A stretch of DNA of 64,000 nt, from NCBI GenBank assembly GCA_017475185.1, contig JAFVGB010000002.1, positions 1 to 64,000 of the forward strand, given 5' to 3'. A program made the position numbers and the translations under genes. This stretch comes from Clostridia bacterium (lineage in GTDB: Bacteria > Bacillota_A > Clostridia > TANB77 > CAG-508). Below, piece by piece: positions 1 through 59,434 of this stretch (within the stretch, counting starts at the first letter, position 1; every line of letters starts with the position of its first letter). The notes beneath the pieces were generated by a model. The model saw only the letters and a program-made list of their open reading frames with translations, made no database searches and was not told where the DNA came from.

Positions 1-396
1 AAGATATGTAAAAATTTTAATAAAGCAAACAATAGATAATGCTTTATTATGTGTTTTAGGACTAATTAAATTAACAAAAGAAAATCTATCTCTATACAAT
101 ACCTCATTTTTATTTTTAAGTGTTAAATCATAAACAATAGCAGTATTACTTAACTTATCATTATTTTCTATCCATAATGTTTTTAAAGCTGCATACATAT
201 TATATAAGTTTTTAATAGATAAACTATTATTAAAATCAACTATAATTTCAGTTAGAGTAATATCTCCATTAGAAAAAGGATTACTAATAGATTTATTTAT
301 TTGTACAAATAAATTATCTGTATACTTAGTAATTACAGCTTGAAAATCCGGATTAGTTAATTCATTAAATGTAAAATTATGTTTACTTTGTATCAT
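1..396 (-). CDS. Hypothetical protein, C-terminus outside window
   Basis: An open frame of 132 codons runs from an ATG at 396 off the left edge of the window. It overlaps the 3' end of the kinase gene by 14 nt, as is usual in this operon. The visible part is rich in Asn, Ile and Leu and has no motif I recognise. It may belong to the small-paralogue family seen elsewhere, but the C-terminus that defines that family is missing. Confidence 0.7.
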   Translation of the reverse strand, partial: MIQSKHNFTFNELTNPDFQAVITKYTDNLFVQINKSISNPFSNGDITLTEIIVDFNNSLSIKNLYNMYAALKTLWIENNDKLSNTAIVYDLTLKNKNEVLYRDRFSFVNLISPKTHNKALSIVCFIKIFTYL

Positions 397-919
397 TTAA
401 CCAATCCTTAATAATACTATATGAATATAAATTTTTTACATCATATAATTTTTCATTTGCTTTACGTATTTCTTTATGCATTCTGATAATTACATCTTCT
501 GGTACACGCTTATAACTGGGTTCTCTCCAATTATTTCTGTTTAAACAATCATTTAAAGTTACGTCTGAAAAATCAACAATAATGACTTCAGCATTAGCTT
601 CTTTACCTATATTTTTAGCAGTATTTAATGACCATCTGTGAATATTAGTGGCATCTAACGTTACAGAAGTTTTCTTTAAATTTTCTTGTACTTGTTTATA
701 TATTTCTTTCCAAACATCTGCACCATTTGCTTGATTTATACCGTAATCTTTCTTTTCTTCACTAAAAACCAATCCCATTAAATTTTTACGTATAGTATCA
801 GATTCTATTACTGTAGAGATTGGCTCTAAATAATTTTTAACAAATGAACTTTTACCTGATCCTGGAATTCCTCTTGTAATAAATAAATATTTAGTATCTT
901 TATTATATGGCTTCAACAT
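383..919 (-). CDS. P-loop polynucleotide kinase-like protein
   Basis: This 178-residue protein is an AAA_33/Pnk-type kinase. Walker A GIPGSGKS is at residues 17-24, followed by ESDTIR (the D..R acceptor-binding motif of T4 Pnk), LDATN and an Arg-rich lid NRNNWREPSYKRVP. It matches the kinase half of T4 Pnk in length and motif order and lacks the phosphatase domain, so 5'-end phosphorylation of nucleic acid is the likely reaction; nucleotide kinase activity is possible. It overlaps the upstream gene, so the two are probably translationally coupled. It lies in an operon with ligase and dCMP deaminase, which suits a role in nucleic-acid repair. Confidence 0.85.
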   Translation of the reverse strand: MLKPYNKDTKYLFITRGIPGSGKSSFVKNYLEPISTVIESDTIRKNLMGLVFSEEKKDYGINQANGADVWKEIYKQVQENLKKTSVTLDATNIHRWSLNTAKNIGKEANAEVIIVDFSDVTLNDCLNRNNWREPSYKRVPEDVIIRMHKEIRKANEKLYDVKNLYSYSIIKDWLNDTK

Positions 920-35548: not shown

Positions 35549-36916
35549 CTAACCATTCTTTCCTTTCTCAATAACAAACGGATATACTTCACCTCTAATC
35601 AATGCTGGAGGCGTAAAGTCTGGATGATCCAAACACATATAGATTACCGGACAATTACTTGTTGTTTCTTTATCACCATCCAATGGATCATAGAAGTCAC
35701 TCATAATTATCAATGTATCTAGATGATCACCTTTGTAATGCTCTTTAACATATTCAAAGTTTTTACGCATATCATTACCACCATCTGACTTAAACTCAAA
35801 TTCATGTAATGTGCTTTTATTTCCAGCAGTATATGTTCTGCATGTTTCAGGATAAACCTCAGAACCACAACACCATACATCTATCTGAAAATCTTTGAAC
35901 TGTGTAAGAATCGTAAACAGATGATCCATCATTGCGTGTAACTCTGTATCATAAATTGAACCAGAAGTATCTACTGCAACACCAATGTGCATCTTAGGAG
36001 TTCTTCCAGCTGAAGGCAAGATTAAACCATTTGCAATACCCGATCTGCTCGGTTTATTCCAAGTATAGTTATCTTTCATCCAACCTCTGATATACTTTGT
36101 CAATGCACGTCTCCAGTTAAACGGTTGAGGCTTATAAGCTTTCTCAATCATTCTATCAATTGCAGATGAACCAGTACCATTCGTTTTAGATCCAAAGACT
36201 TCAGCCATCTTAGAGATAACTTCATTTCTTGTAGTATCATCAACCATAGGCATATGTTCATCGATCTGAGGACATCCTGATTTATTATTACCATCAAAAG
36301 TAAACTCAGGATTCTTAGCATTTGCTTTTGCATTAGCTACATTCGGATTCTGAGGTTGTTCACGTTCAGCATCTTTCTTAAGATCTTCGTAAATAGTTTC
36401 TGCATCCCAGTTTCTATACTTAGACTCATATAATACAAAGTCAGGCATATTACCTACAGATTGATGGATACAATCACCTCTTGCATTAGTTGATTCGTTA
36501 TTATGTAACAAACTATTAATCTCATAGTCTGTTGCCATATTCCAGAGTTGCCATCTTAGACGACCTTCTTCATTCATCATATCTTTATAGATACCTTGTT
36601 GTGTACCTCTATCGAATGTTAAACCAAGAAGATGCATTAACTCATGACATAAGATAAACATCATTTCATATTTACCTACATGACAATCAATTTCTTCACC
36701 TTCTTGTGTATGCTGAATTGGATCTGCATTAAACTTTTCAACAGCAGCTGCATTAATGTAAATTGCTTTACCATTTGTCCAACCCATAACATCTTTACCA
36801 GGTTCATCAACAATTACCCAACCAATACGTGTTATTAGCTGAGCATAAATCGGAAAGTCTAAAACTAATTCAATGATAGCTTTCTCACAAATATCTTCTA
36901 CTTGTTTACTAGCCAT
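35549..36916 (-). CDS. DUF2201-type metallopeptidase/VWA protein
   Basis: 455 residues. HELMHLLG at 91-95 is the metallopeptidase-like helix of DUF2201 (VWA-like) proteins. The C-terminal half is a von Willebrand A domain with MIDAS DTSGS at 316-320. A Gly/Asn/Lys-rich linker separates them. This domain pair is normally encoded beside a MoxR-type AAA+ ATPase, as here (37419-38654). Such pairs act as metal-dependent chaperone-like machines that load or remodel partner proteins; the phage target is unknown. Confidence 0.85.
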   Translation of the reverse strand: MASKQVEDICEKAIIELVLDFPIYAQLITRIGWVIVDEPGKDVMGWTNGKAIYINAAAVEKFNADPIQHTQEGEEIDCHVGKYEMMFILCHELMHLLGLTFDRGTQQGIYKDMMNEEGRLRWQLWNMATDYEINSLLHNNESTNARGDCIHQSVGNMPDFVLYESKYRNWDAETIYEDLKKDAEREQPQNPNVANAKANAKNPEFTFDGNNKSGCPQIDEHMPMVDDTTRNEVISKMAEVFGSKTNGTGSSAIDRMIEKAYKPQPFNWRRALTKYIRGWMKDNYTWNKPSRSGIANGLILPSAGRTPKMHIGVAVDTSGSIYDTELHAMMDHLFTILTQFKDFQIDVWCCGSEVYPETCRTYTAGNKSTLHEFEFKSDGGNDMRKNFEYVKEHYKGDHLDTLIIMSDFYDPLDGDKETTSNCPVIYMCLDHPDFTPPALIRGEVYPFVIEKGKNG

Positions 36917-57057: not shown

Positions 57058-57132
57058 TTAGACATTACCTCCGCTAGTTTTACCGGCGAAGCCAAACATA
57101 TGCCAACATTTCTTAACCATATTAATCATCAT
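57058..57132 (-). CDS. 24-residue peptide with its own promoter and terminator
   Basis: Frame MMINMVKKCWHMFGFAGKTSGGNV from ATGATG at 57132. AAAGG lies about 10 nt upstream, the promoter (57166-57200) and terminator (56984-57020) flank it closely, so this is a monocistronic unit. The C-terminal half (GFAGKTSGGN) is Gly/Ser-rich. Peptide identity unknown; an RNA function is the alternative. Confidence 0.5.
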   Translation of the reverse strand: MMINMVKKCWHMFGFAGKTSGGNV

Positions 57133-57200: not shown

Positions 57201-57328
57201 TTTAAATAAGAAATAATATTAAATTGAAAAACTTTACGTATTTTTCTTGAGTACTTCCCAACAACGGTTTAAACATTAATTATTTGGAGAAGGCTTATGA
57301 ACTACAAACCTACAGAAGTAAAACTAGT

Positions 57329-57457
57329 GATAAAGAGAATATCTTAAAGAGATGTAATACAGTGGGAATCGAACCCACATGACATTTAAGTCATTGTTTT
57401 TCAAGAACAATTGCGTATACCGTTTCGCGATGTAACTCTTTAACCCGCTTCTTTATC
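57329..57457 (-). ncRNA. Y-like RNA A with tRNA-like module
   Basis: Outer stem GATAAAGA/TCTTTATC, internal loop (AAGCGGGTT opposite TAAGATATTC), stem AAAGAG/CTCTTT, then TTACATCG and a nearly complete tRNA-like fold: D-arm GCG..CGC (Leu-like), anticodon stem TTGTT/AACAA with loop CTTGAAA (as in Ser-TGA), a long variable arm, and a T-arm GTGGG-TTCGATT-CCCAC. The acceptor (AGTTACA/TGTATTA) is poorly paired and no CCA follows. TTACATC occurs on both sides. Confidence 0.68.
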
Positions 57458-57467
57458 ATAATTTTGC

Positions 57468-57588
57468 TTATGGAGAGAATAAATAGAACAGATTTATTGC
57501 AGTAGGACTTGAACCTACAATAGTACTTTTCAATAAGTAATGTTTTAACCAATTAAACGATGCAACTGTTCCAACCGCTTCTCCATAA
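57468..57588 (-). ncRNA. Y-like RNA B with tRNA-like module
   Basis: Outer stem TTATGGAGA/TCTCCATAA, internal loop AAGCGGTTG opposite TATTTATTC, stem GAACAG/CTGTTC, TTGCATCG, then a tRNA-like fold with T-arm GTAGG-TTCAAGT-CCTAC. The anticodon arm TACTT/AAGTA has a 6-nt loop (ATTGAA), not the normal 7. No CCA. Not a functional tRNA by sequence. Confidence 0.7.
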
Positions 57589-57593
57589 TAATA

Positions 57594-57685
57594 TTTTACT
57601 GTAGGAAGAGAATATTTAGAAATTGTGTATATGTAGCAGTCATTCCAAAGACGATGTAACAATTTCTTCCGCTTCTTCACTAAAA
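57594..57685 (-). ncRNA. Y-like RNA C
   Basis: Outer stem TTTTA..TCTTC style pairing (57594-57609 with 57674-57685), AAGCGG opposite AAATATTC, stem AGAAATTGT/ACAATTTCT, TTACATCG, then a short hairpin GTC-TTTGGAAT-GAC resembling an anticodon arm. No T-arm. Confidence 0.62.
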
Positions 57686-57695
57686 ACTGTCCAGA

Positions 57696-57792
57696 ATTGT
57701 GAGGGTTAGAATATCTTAAAGAGTTTTTATTTCGATTATTTGATTAAAAGTCAAGTCCGATGTAACTCTCTAAACCGCTTAACCCTCACAAT
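57696..57792 (-). ncRNA. Y-like RNA D
   Basis: Perfect 13-bp outer stem ATTGTGAGGGTTA/TAACCCTCACAAT, AAGCGGTTTA opposite TAAGATATTC, stem AGAGTT/AACTCT, TTACATCG, then TTGA-CTTTTAA-TCAA, identical in loop to the tRNA-Lys(TTT) anticodon loop, and an ATCGAAAT remnant of a T-loop. It begins 5 nt after the TROVE stop codon. Confidence 0.68.
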
Positions 57793-57796
57793 AATT

Positions 57797-59434
57797 TTAC
57801 TTAACTGATGTCTTTATCTTAATACTCTTTTTTGTATTTGTAAAGTCATTTTCTTCAGTTTTTTGATTTTTATTTTGCATTCTATCCCAAATATCAATTA
57901 CAGCATTAGCATAGAGTGCTTCCTTACCTGTCCAACCAGTCAAGATAGATGTACGGTATTCATTTTCTGGTACGACATTGTTATCATATCCAGCAGTTTG
58001 TACTGAGAATACATTTACCTTTGGATTAACCTTCTGTCTATATACTTGAATCAGCTTTAAGACATCGATATAAGAACCACGAGTAACGTAATCTAAATAA
58101 TCCGCAGAGTTGATACCATATAATCCACCATGACCAGCCTGCATATCAGAGTAAATAAAAATGTTATCGTAATGTATTTTCTTTTTAATTGCTTGATCAA
58201 AGAATAACCAAATACCATTTTCAGTAGAACCACCAATATTATGTGAATGCTTACTTTGAATCTTATCTAATTGAGACAATACACCATCTCTCTTGTTAAC
58301 AGATTCAATCTCTAATCTATCACCGAAAATTCCAACATACCCTTCATCAGAGTTAATAGCTGTCATAACGGAAGACAAGTTATCAATTTCAGCAACCTTA
58401 ACAGATCCATATTCAGTAGTTAAAGCACCCCAAGCAGATCCAGAGTTATCGGATAAGCAAATTGTCTTACCTTTTAACTTAGGAAAATTATCCATTGCTC
58501 TATCCATACATCTGTTCAAGCTTTCTACAATAGCAGATTCACCCTTAACACGTGGATTAGAAGTTTGGATAGCCTTTAATGCAGACCAGTATCTGAATGG
58601 GAATTGCTTACCTTTTTCAACACCATTTTCAAGCATTTCAAGAACTTGCTTTCTGACATCTTCATCTTCAATCTCAGTAAAAATACCACGTAAGTTTCTC
58701 AACAAAGCCATGTGTGGTAAATATGTAGATTGTAAAATTTCAGTCCAAGTCTTACCCTCACTTCTCAATTTTTCCCAAGTAGATTCTTCATCAGTAACTT
58801 CAATTGTACCAGACTTCATTAACTCATTGATATCTTCAGAACTAGCATGACAAATACGAACTAAGTCAATAATCTTAGCCTTAGTCTTGTACTTAGCTAA
58901 CTGATACTTCTTAGTATGATTTAACTTCTCAGCCCAAGCTCTCTTCAAAATAGATGGTAACTTGTTCTTAGATCCATTGAAGAACATCCACAACTCAAAC
59001 TGATTCCAAATATCAGTAGGAATATTAATTACTTCTTCAATACAAGCACGCATGAATACCTTATTTTCTTCATTAAATGCTTTTCTACCTTCATGCATTA
59101 CAGCTCTAACCATAATTAAAGCAGGATTTAAACGCATATTATATTCATAACGTAACTTTTTAGCTAATTCCAAAACACCTTTAAAATCATAACTTAAAGC
59201 ATTATCACAAGCCTTAATGAAAGTTTGAGTTGTACTATTTAATTTCTTATCCTTTACACCGTCATTCATATAATAGGACTTTTCACCAAAAATAGATGAT
59301 GCAGCCACCATTTCTAATTCGAGTAATGGGTTAGTTGTATAGGAAATTCCATCCATATAATTTACAACTTGCTCATCCTTATGCTTATTATAATCTGCTT
59401 CTGTTTTACTTGCGTATCCAGAGAACTTAGACAT
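57797..59434 (-). CDS. Ro60/Rsr-like TROVE protein
   Basis: 545 residues. The TROVE helical-repeat domain spans ~1-300 ('LPSILKRAWAEKLNHTKKYQLAKYKTKAKIIDLVRICHA' is the signature part). A VWA-like C-terminal domain has MIDAS D329-N-S-G-S333 and 'IYSDMQAGHGG'. Ro60 proteins form a ring that binds misfolded small RNAs in the cavity and Y RNAs on the outside; bacterial Rsr uses Y RNAs with a tRNA-like module. The four Y-like RNAs just downstream on the same strand support that role here. Promoter at 59474-59509. Confidence 0.9.
   Translation of the reverse strand: MSKFSGYASKTEADYNKHKDEQVVNYMDGISYTTNPLLELEMVAASSIFGEKSYYMNDGVKDKKLNSTTQTFIKACDNALSYDFKGVLELAKKLRYEYNMRLNPALIMVRAVMHEGRKAFNEENKVFMRACIEEVINIPTDIWNQFELWMFFNGSKNKLPSILKRAWAEKLNHTKKYQLAKYKTKAKIIDLVRICHASSEDINELMKSGTIEVTDEESTWEKLRSEGKTWTEILQSTYLPHMALLRNLRGIFTEIEDEDVRKQVLEMLENGVEKGKQFPFRYWSALKAIQTSNPRVKGESAIVESLNRCMDRAMDNFPKLKGKTICLSDNSGSAWGALTTEYGSVKVAEIDNLSSVMTAINSDEGYVGIFGDRLEIESVNKRDGVLSQLDKIQSKHSHNIGGSTENGIWLFFDQAIKKKIHYDNIFIYSDMQAGHGGLYGINSADYLDYVTRGSYIDVLKLIQVYRQKVNPKVNVFSVQTAGYDNNVVPENEYRTSILTGWTGKEALYANAVIDIWDRMQNKNQKTEENDFTNTKKSIKIKTSVK

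What the first reader, a model, noticed from the sequence alone, without database searches (positions are those of the whole stretch)
57329..59434. Phage Ro60 (TROVE) gene with four tandem Y-like RNAs carrying tRNA-mimic modules
Seen: a full-length TROVE-VWA gene is followed, 5 nt after its stop and on the same strand, by four RNAs with one scaffold: outer stem, AAGCGG opposite (A/T)ATTC in an internal loop, second stem, then UURCAUCG. The outer and inner stems differ in sequence in every copy but remain paired, which is covariation. Copies A and B contain T-arms and tRNA-like folds; C and D contain anticodon-arm-like hairpins, D with the exact Lys CUUUUAA loop. Known: bacterial Rsr binds Y RNAs that can mimic tRNA. 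Inference: a phage-encoded Ro particle with a set of different RNA adaptors, perhaps to steer RNA processing or act as decoys for anticodon nucleases.
Basis: partly seen in the sequence, partly recalled or inferred. Interest (0 to 1): 0.95.

Follow-up and report, generated by a model that had tools for sequence, protein, structure and literature searches.

The report
Phage Ro60 with tRNA-bait RNAs
A bacterial virus carries a gene for a Ro60-family protein directly followed by four predicted small RNAs that share one scaffold but display different pieces of transfer RNA; the protein is predicted to hold them, and they likely serve as baits for the host enzymes that would cut transfer RNA to stop an infection.

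Summary
A TROVE (Ro60/Rsr-fold) gene at 57797-59434(-) in phage DNA is followed by four RNAs with one scaffold: outer stem, AAGCGG/AUAUUCU internal loop, inner stem, UURCAUCG. A structural scan finds exactly these four in the 64-kb window. Two relatives keep all four, with compensatory changes (11 double-changed pairs in RNA 4, 11 in RNA 1). RNA 3 and RNA 4 contain tRNA cores in normal D-anticodon-T order, joined by the acceptor end to the Ro stem and without CCA, whereas 16 of 17 free tRNAs here end in CCA. Known YrlA Y RNAs are permuted tRNAs whose Rfam consensus has no anticodon arm; this design presents that arm instead. It also occurs in the other phage lineages found (TROVE identity 50-52% and 25%), each with a Lys(UUU) loop, and anticodon arms are exchanged while the rest stays put (window RNA 3 vs L001: arm 8/17 identical, rest 97/102). 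Other TROVE phages carry arrays too, some with permuted modules. Best reading: a phage Ro RNP displaying swappable anticodon baits against tRNA-cutting immunity; binding, expression and decoy action are untested. New variant of a known kind.

The parts
57797..59434 (-). TROVE/Ro60-family protein gene (545 aa; helical ring part plus VWA part with DNSGS motif)
   Evidence: ORF; Pfam TROVE 46.5 bits; phrog_850 RNA-binding protein; AF2 model matches phage phiLo Ro60, vertebrate Ro60 and Deinococcus Rsr
57696..57792 (-).
   Evidence: scan score 22.8; model R1 47.7 bits; 11 of 26 pairs with double changes among three relatives
57740..57754 (-). hairpin UUGA-CUUUUAA-UCAA of RNA 1, tRNA-Lys(UUU)-type loop
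   Evidence: sequence; L001 keeps the loop with a different stem, L002 has CAUGUAA
57602..57682 (-).
   Evidence: scan score 15.0; R1 25.6 bits, below some free tRNAs; conserved in L001, L002
57468..57588 (-).
   Evidence: scan 16.4; R1 72.9 bits, E 2.7e-15; covariation
57494..57567 (-). tRNA core inside RNA 3; no CCA; anticodon loop of 6 or 8 nt
   Evidence: Rfam tRNA 44.6 bits; ARAGORN; ends
57328..57458 (-).
   Evidence: scan 17.0; R1 56.7 bits; 35 pairs, 100% paired, 11 double-changed
57353..57438 (-). tRNA core inside RNA 4, anticodon loop CUUGAAA (UGA, Ser); no CCA
   Evidence: Rfam tRNA 31.8 bits; ARAGORN; ends

Best explanation
This is a phage gene for a Ro60/Rsr-family protein followed on the same strand by four predicted RNAs that share a two-stem scaffold but carry different tRNA pieces; the protein likely holds them, and they likely act as anticodon baits that would occupy host tRNA-cutting nucleases during infection. 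Steps. (1) Shown: TROVE gene, four scaffold copies, conserved and covarying in two relatives. (2) Predicted: each RNA's double stem sits on the Ro ring, as the analogous stem of YrlA does in known Rsr particles. (3) Shown: in RNA 3 and RNA 4 a tRNA core in normal order is fused by its acceptor end to the Ro stem and has no CCA end, so it should not be chargeable; RNA 1 keeps only an anticodon-arm-like hairpin with the Lys(UUU) loop, RNA 2 a small D-arm-like hairpin. (4) Shown in relatives: the anticodon arm is exchanged while the body stays, and a Lys(UUU) loop recurs in each phage lineage found here with this design (in the window itself only in RNA 1). (5) Inferred: the exposed arm is the working end and its identity sets which nuclease is bound (PrrC- or PARIS-type enzymes for Lys(UUU)); Ro stabilises and concentrates the baits.
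For: Scaffold specificity and conservation. A model built only from L177/L178/L189 (TROVE 50-52% identical to the window's) recovers window RNA 3, 4 and 1 at 72.9, 56.7 and 47.7 bits, above the best free tRNA (41.1). Anticodon hairpins with 7-nt U33 loops: 25 of 44 T-arm-bearing RNAs vs shuffle mean 4.7, max 12 in 500 shuffles; normal-order group 12 of 14, 0 of 1000 shuffles as high (one of the 14, L226, is misfiled). All five anticodon-stem pairs have double changes in A7. Arm exchange: window vs L001 RNA 3 arm 8/17, rest 97/102; L177 vs L178 first RNA arm 7/17, rest 89/113. Lys(UUU) in 5 of 11 normal-order hairpins of L001, L002, L177, L178, L189 and window (L226 left out) vs 3 of 70 free tRNAs there (one search prints 4 of 71; one of them is the embedded L189 copy), plus csAssE (ARAGORN) and 3300012007_000011 (read by eye). 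No CCA on 2 of 2 embedded cores, CCA on 16 of 17 free tRNAs. Lys(UUU), Thr(UGU) and Asn(GUU) are PARIS AriB targets and T5 tRNAs relieve it (PMC12409363, passages); PrrC hits tRNA-Lys, retron-Eco7 tRNA-Tyr, both relieved by phage tRNAs (PMC11555353, passages). A competitive-inhibitor role of YrlA towards an anticodon nuclease was already suggested for Salmonella (PMC7790460, passage).
Against: No expression, binding or infection data. Window RNA 3 has an anticodon loop of 6 or 8 nt, RNA 2 has no anticodon arm, and RNA 4 shows Ser(UGA) (Leu(CAA) in L002), not a target named in the passages seen. The anticodon stem of RNA 4 never varies among the three relatives, so it adds no covariation. AriB seems to need contacts beyond the anticodon arm (PMC12409363), so a hairpin alone as in RNA 1 may not bind it. 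In Salmonella, YrlA was not cut by the nuclease (PMC7790460). The host is unknown, so presence of such nucleases in it is unknown. Ten embedded cores in five loci resemble no particular free tRNA of their phage (best 53-64%, background mean 49-53%). Permuted phage Y RNAs with a D arm mostly lack a clear anticodon arm (3 of 13 have one), and many TROVE loci gave no copy (101 of 162 at score 13.5; R1 found 1 match in 23 further TROVE loci), so the decoy idea does not cover all phage Ro loci.
Confidence: 0.45

Rival explanations
1. RYPER-like tether: the RNAs link the phage Ro ring to a host exonuclease such as PNPase (or another RNase) and aim it at structured RNA, the tRNA modules being the docking face.
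For: Known action of Rsr-Y RNA-PNPase in Deinococcus (PMC12282133 and PMC8394870, passages). Some relatives have YrlA-order modules (phage G 36.2 bits to RF02553; 13 permuted cases).
Against: Does not explain anticodon-arm exchange on a constant body or the recurring Lys(UUU) loop. Four different modules for one nuclease would be odd.
Confidence: 0.25
2. Ordinary Y RNA lids: modules only block or gate the Ro outer surface and their tRNA identity does not matter.
For: Gating by Y RNAs is the classical view (recalled; reviews not held). RNA 2 and many short relatives have no visible tRNA content.
Against: Covariation and anticodon-loop enrichment beyond shuffles.
Confidence: 0.13
3. tRNA repair or processing hub: modules recruit tRNA enzymes (phage kinase/ligase, modification enzymes) to damaged tRNA held by the Ro ring.
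For: Polynucleotide-kinase-like gene at 383-919 (phrog_505; also the first 143 positions of phrog_8238, 'RNA ligase'); in some bacteria rsr and Y RNA genes sit with rtcBA (PMC7790460); tRNA clusters on both sides.
Against: The kinase gene is 57 kb away; no RNA ligase domain was identified among the proteins scanned (not all ORFs were scanned).
Confidence: 0.12
4. tRNA precursors or relics: RNA 3 and 4 are tRNA genes (or decayed ones) that happen to lie in paired flanks.
For: ARAGORN and Rfam call them tRNAs.
Against: No CCA, acceptor strands continuous with the inner stem, odd anticodon loop in RNA 3; the scaffold covaries and recurs without a tRNA core in RNA 1/2.
Confidence: 0.05

Closest known systems
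Bacterial YrlA Y RNA with Rsr (Rfam RF02553)
   Same: Ro60-family gene next to RNAs with two stems, an internal loop and a UAC after the inner stem; tRNA mimicry (Rfam consensus seen)
   Different: YrlA is a circularly permuted tRNA mimic (PMC11472068, passages) whose Rfam consensus has no anticodon arm; the window RNAs do not match RF02553 up to E=10, RNA 3 and 4 keep normal tRNA order, and four different copies stand together
Phage Ro proteins and putative phage Y RNAs (mycobacteriophages cited from Chen 2014; Listeria phage CKA15; jumbo phages; Thermus phage phiLo Ro60 structures 9kop/9l5y)
   Same: TROVE protein in a phage; Y RNAs proposed (PMC12282133, PMC7824862, PMC7765460, passages; folds)
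   Different: None of the passages seen describes arrays with normal-order tRNA cores or exchangeable anticodon arms; Chen 2014 itself was not held and was not seen
Phage tRNAs that relieve PARIS, PrrC or retron-Eco7 (T5, SP15)
   Same: phage RNAs bearing Lys(UUU) or other targeted anticodons
   Different: those are true tRNAs that supply uncut or abundant tRNA; these are cores without CCA fixed in a Ro scaffold

Membership tests
Ro60/Rsr (TROVE) proteins | TROVE domain above Pfam cut-off | tested here: met
   46.5 bits vs 23, matched over residues 219-300
Ro60/Rsr (TROVE) proteins | helical ring plus VWA fold of Ro60 | tested here: met
Ro60/Rsr (TROVE) proteins | binds Y RNA | not testable with these tools
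   needs pull-down; R193 and H196 are invariant in the 17 sequences of A1; their likeness to the human Ro60 binding site is recalled
YrlA / bacterial Y RNA | encoded beside a Ro60-family gene | tested here: met
   4-5 nt after its stop
YrlA / bacterial Y RNA | outer stem, asymmetric internal loop, inner stem | tested here: met
   compared by eye with the consensus
YrlA / bacterial Y RNA | match to Rfam RF02553 | tested here: not met
   no match to E=10; phage G and L206 relatives 30-36 bits, below gathering 69
YrlA / bacterial Y RNA | permuted tRNA order (T, acceptor hairpin, D) | tested here: not met
   RNA 3 and 4 are D-anticodon-T
functional tRNA gene | free acceptor end with CCA | tested here: not met
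   0 of 2 embedded vs 16 of 17 free
functional tRNA gene | 7-nt anticodon loop | tested here: inconclusive
   met in RNA 4, not in RNA 3
anticodon-nuclease decoy | anticodon identity equals a known target | tested here: inconclusive
   Lys(UUU) loop in RNA 1 and in the relatives' RNA 3; RNA 4 Ser(UGA) or Leu(CAA)
anticodon-nuclease decoy | inhibits the nuclease | not testable with these tools
   needs an assay
RYPER (Rsr-Y RNA-PNPase) | binds PNPase | not testable with these tools
   needs pull-down

The most novel reading that the evidence does not exclude
A phage 'anticodon display' machine: a Ro60 ring carrying a small library of uncharged tRNA cores fused by their acceptor ends, whose anticodon arms are swapped like cassettes as host tRNA-cutting immunity changes; an RNA-based, multi-target anti-defence particle unlike known anti-defence proteins or phage tRNAs.
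Probability: 0.35. Interest if true: 0.93.

Novelty: new variant of a known kind. Interest (0 to 1): 0.8.

Why it matters
What bacterial and phage Ro60-Y RNA particles do is a long-open question (recalled). A design that turns the known tRNA mimic end for end, so that the anticodon arm sticks out, and in which that arm is the part that gets exchanged, points to a concrete test: does the RNP bind tRNA-cutting defence enzymes? It also suggests that some 'tRNAs' annotated next to phage TROVE genes are not tRNAs.

Tried and rejected

ARAGORN on doubled effector pieces to find permuted tRNAs: 13 of 79 hit, shuffled doubles 0.0 on average; the 'antisense' row (also 13) is no control because ARAGORN reads both strands. 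30 of 109 scan hits were dropped there (loose heads or identical copies). In one search, 6 of 44 were dropped as weak or nested (2 of the 6 had a hairpin).

Alignment A6 of 11 RNAs misplaced the 3' ends and was not used; A7 (7 RNAs of one lineage) was used instead. Model R1 also scores ordinary tRNAs (19-41 bits in the window), so its weak matches (RNA 2, much) are not evidence. R1 at E<=1e-5 found 1 match in 23 further TROVE loci.

The scanner, tuned to the G(C/U)GG head, does not find the differently headed copies of crAss001, cr106, RHph_TM30, BRock, Rabbitrun or Atuin (score 10.5 or more); those were seen by eye as repeated UUACUUC heads. No such copies were evident in the fetched stretches of Vibrio phage Va1, phiLo, LR745206 or Desulfovibrio phage 7757.

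Origin by recent copying of a phage tRNA: not supported, best identity to free tRNAs 53-64%, near the background. Promoter/terminator scan: not above shuffles.

Binomial for Lys(UUU) at a rate of 3/67: 6.6e-5 for 5 of 11, 6.8e-4 for 4 of 10; rough, orthologues are not independent.

No paper in the listings is titled or abstracted as describing such arrays; only listings and the passages named were seen. The key Y RNA papers and reviews (Chen 2014, Sim and Wolin 2018, Wang 2018, Sim 2020) were not held, so a description there cannot be excluded.
Full report

The four RNAs. Four to five nt after the stop codon begin four copies of one fold: outer stem of 8-13 pairs, then AAGCGG opposite an A/U-rich strand with AUUCU, an inner stem, then UURCAUCG, then a variable module. 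A scanner for this head plus two helices finds exactly these four in the window and nothing else on either strand. Around TROVE genes it finds 96 copies in 61 of 162 loci at score 13.5 or more; one dinucleotide shuffle of each gives 3 in 2 loci; 101 loci gave none at that score, and the loci include near-duplicates. In the wider list (score 12.5 or more) 107 of 109 hits lie on the TROVE strand, most of them within about 1 kb of the gene.

Covariation. Two IMG/VR phages, L001 and L002 (TROVE 83-87% identical within this group of three), have the same four RNAs in the same order; in L002 a small gene is inserted between the first two. RNA 4: 35 pairs, all formed in all three sequences, 11 with a change on both sides, 0 of 500 shuffles as high; the outer, inner, acceptor, D, variable and T helices contribute, the anticodon stem never varies. 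RNA 1: 26 pairs, 93.3% formed, 11 double-changed, 0 of 500. RNA 3: 34 pairs, 97.1%, 5 double-changed, 2 of 500. RNA 2 was aligned but its pairs were not counted by tool.

What the modules are. RNA 3 and RNA 4 hold tRNA cores (Rfam tRNA 44.6 and 31.8 bits) in the order D arm, anticodon arm, (variable arm), T arm. The acceptor strands run into the inner Ro stem. Neither ends in CCA, while 16 of the 17 free tRNAs of the window do (the 17th is an ARAGORN Ile call whose ends look mis-set). RNA 4 has the Ser(UGA) loop CUUGAAA. RNA 3 has a 6- or 8-nt loop here, but a Lys-type UUUUUAA loop in L001 and L002. RNA 1 keeps only a hairpin with the Lys loop CUUUUAA; L002 has CAUGUAA there, anticodon UGU but A at position 33. 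RNA 2 has a small hairpin with GG in its loop, more D-arm-like than anticodon-like. Ten embedded cores in five loci are no recent copies of their phage's own tRNAs: best identities 53-64%, background mean 49-53%.

How this differs from YrlA. Rfam's YrlA consensus, seen, runs Ro stem, T arm, acceptor hairpin, D arm, Ro stem: a circularly permuted tRNA (also PMC11472068, passages) with no anticodon arm. The window RNAs do not match RF02553 up to E=10. Relatives do show the YrlA order: Bacillus phage G (six copies upstream of gp540, one of them a permuted tRNA, 36.2 bits to RF02553), the bacterial MAG contig L206 (32.8 and 30.1 bits) and, read by eye, Rhizobium phage RHph_TM30. crAss001, cr106, BRock, Rabbitrun, Mvi-JY20 and Atuin show two to five repeated UUACUUC- or UUACAUC-type heads beside TROVE by eye; the scanner misses nearly all of these because the rest of the head differs, and four other named records showed none. 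So arrays of Y-like RNAs beside phage TROVE genes appear common, and the normal-order design is one branch of them.

Other phages with the normal-order design. L177/L199, L178 and L189 (TROVE 73-76% among L177, L178 and L189, 50-52% to the window), and csAssE-Sib and contig 3300012007_000011 (53% to each other, 25% to the window). A covariance model from seven RNAs of L177/L178/L189 (26 pairs, 96.1% formed, 19 double-changed, all five anticodon-stem pairs among them) finds window RNA 3, 4 and 1 at 72.9, 56.7 and 47.7 bits; the best free tRNA scores 41.1 and RNA 2 only 25.6.

Anticodon arms. Among 44 scaffold-positive RNAs with a T arm (of 161 heads), 25 have a hairpin with a 7-nt U33 loop upstream of it; 500 shuffles gave 4.7 on average and 12 at most. 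After dropping 6 weak or nested cases: normal-order group 12 of 14 (0 of 1000 shuffles as high; L226 in it is misfiled), anticodon+T group 8 of 11 (0 of 1000), permuted with D arm 3 of 13 (2 of 1000). Lys(UUU) makes 5 of 11 hairpins in the normal-order loci L001, L002, L177, L178, L189 and window, against 3 of 70 free tRNAs in them, and is also present in csAssE (ARAGORN) and in 3300012007_000011 (AAAAC-CUUUUAA-GUUUU, read by eye). The arm is exchanged as a unit: window vs L001 RNA 3 arm 8/17 but rest 97/102 identical; first RNA of L177 vs L178 arm 7/17, rest 89/113; in RNA 4 the loop changes from UGA to CAA in L002 within a constant stem.

Mechanism. Shown: gene, scaffold, modules, conservation, arm exchange. 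Predicted: Ro binding and transcription. Inferred: the displayed anticodon arm is the working end. Some host defences cut tRNAs at the anticodon arm: PARIS AriB cuts Lys(UUU), Thr(UGU), Asn(GUU) and Thr(CGU) and is relieved by T5 tRNAs (PMC12409363, abstract and passages); PrrC targets tRNA-Lys and retron-Eco7 depletes tRNA-Tyr, both relieved by phage tRNAs (PMC11555353, abstract and passages). A competitive-inhibitor role for YrlA was suggested, untested, for Salmonella (PMC7790460, passage). I therefore favour anticodon baits held by a Ro ring (0.45), over an RNase tether as in Deinococcus (0.25), a plain Ro lid (0.13), a tRNA-repair hub (0.12) and tRNA relics (0.05). Against: no experiment; the window's own RNA 3 loop is odd; RNA 4 shows Ser or Leu, not a target named in those passages; AriB seems to need more than the anticodon arm; host unknown.

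Prior knowledge. Phage Ro proteins and possible phage Y RNAs are in print (PMC12282133, PMC7824862, PMC7765460; passages), crAss001's TROVE gene is early-expressed (PMC10136315, passage), and a Borg TROVE gene is noted (PMC11208441, passage). None of the passages seen describes normal-order tRNA cores or arm exchange. The main Y RNA papers were not held and I did not see them. Verdict: new variant of a known kind, interest 0.8.

Noticed in passing
57058-57132 (-) and L001 7186-7260: A 24-aa reading frame, MMINMVKKCWHMFGFAGKTSGGNV, downstream of the array is nearly identical in L001 (MMNTMVKKCWHMFGFAGKTSGGAI): a likely conserved microprotein.
   Followed up: partly
L006 (csAssE-Sib OR575929.1 72756-72828 and 72901-72974): Genes annotated as tRNA-Tyr and tRNA-Lys beside the Ro gene sit inside Y-like scaffolds and are probably not ordinary tRNAs.
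   Followed up: partly
L139, L149, L151, L153, L160, L164, L168, L201, within about 0.6 kb upstream of TROVE: Y-like RNAs of 217-232 nt share a long inserted domain (with stretches like GACUAGAAAU and GAUUACCUCCC) that no search here explained.
   Followed up: no
L225 651-1225: A ROOL RNA (RF03087, 310 bits) lies in the same tRNA-rich region of this Mogibacterium MAG contig, about 3.4 kb upstream of the Y-like RNA.
   Followed up: no
L295 (HGTV-1, start of locus): A halovirus tRNA-Asp annotated with an intron contains GCGUUACUUCG followed by a T arm; it may be a Y-like RNA in an archaeal virus.
   Followed up: no
383-919 (-): Polynucleotide-kinase-like gene (phrog_505, phrog_8238), of interest for tRNA repair.
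   Followed up: partly
L002 between 6725 and 7078: A small gene starting MKKVLMLCSILLSACTC (lipoprotein-like, read by eye) is inserted between RNA 1 and RNA 2, so the array is not one fixed unit.
   Followed up: no
35549-36916 (-): DUF2201 metallopeptidase/VWA protein, a second VWA-like gene in the phage.
   Followed up: no
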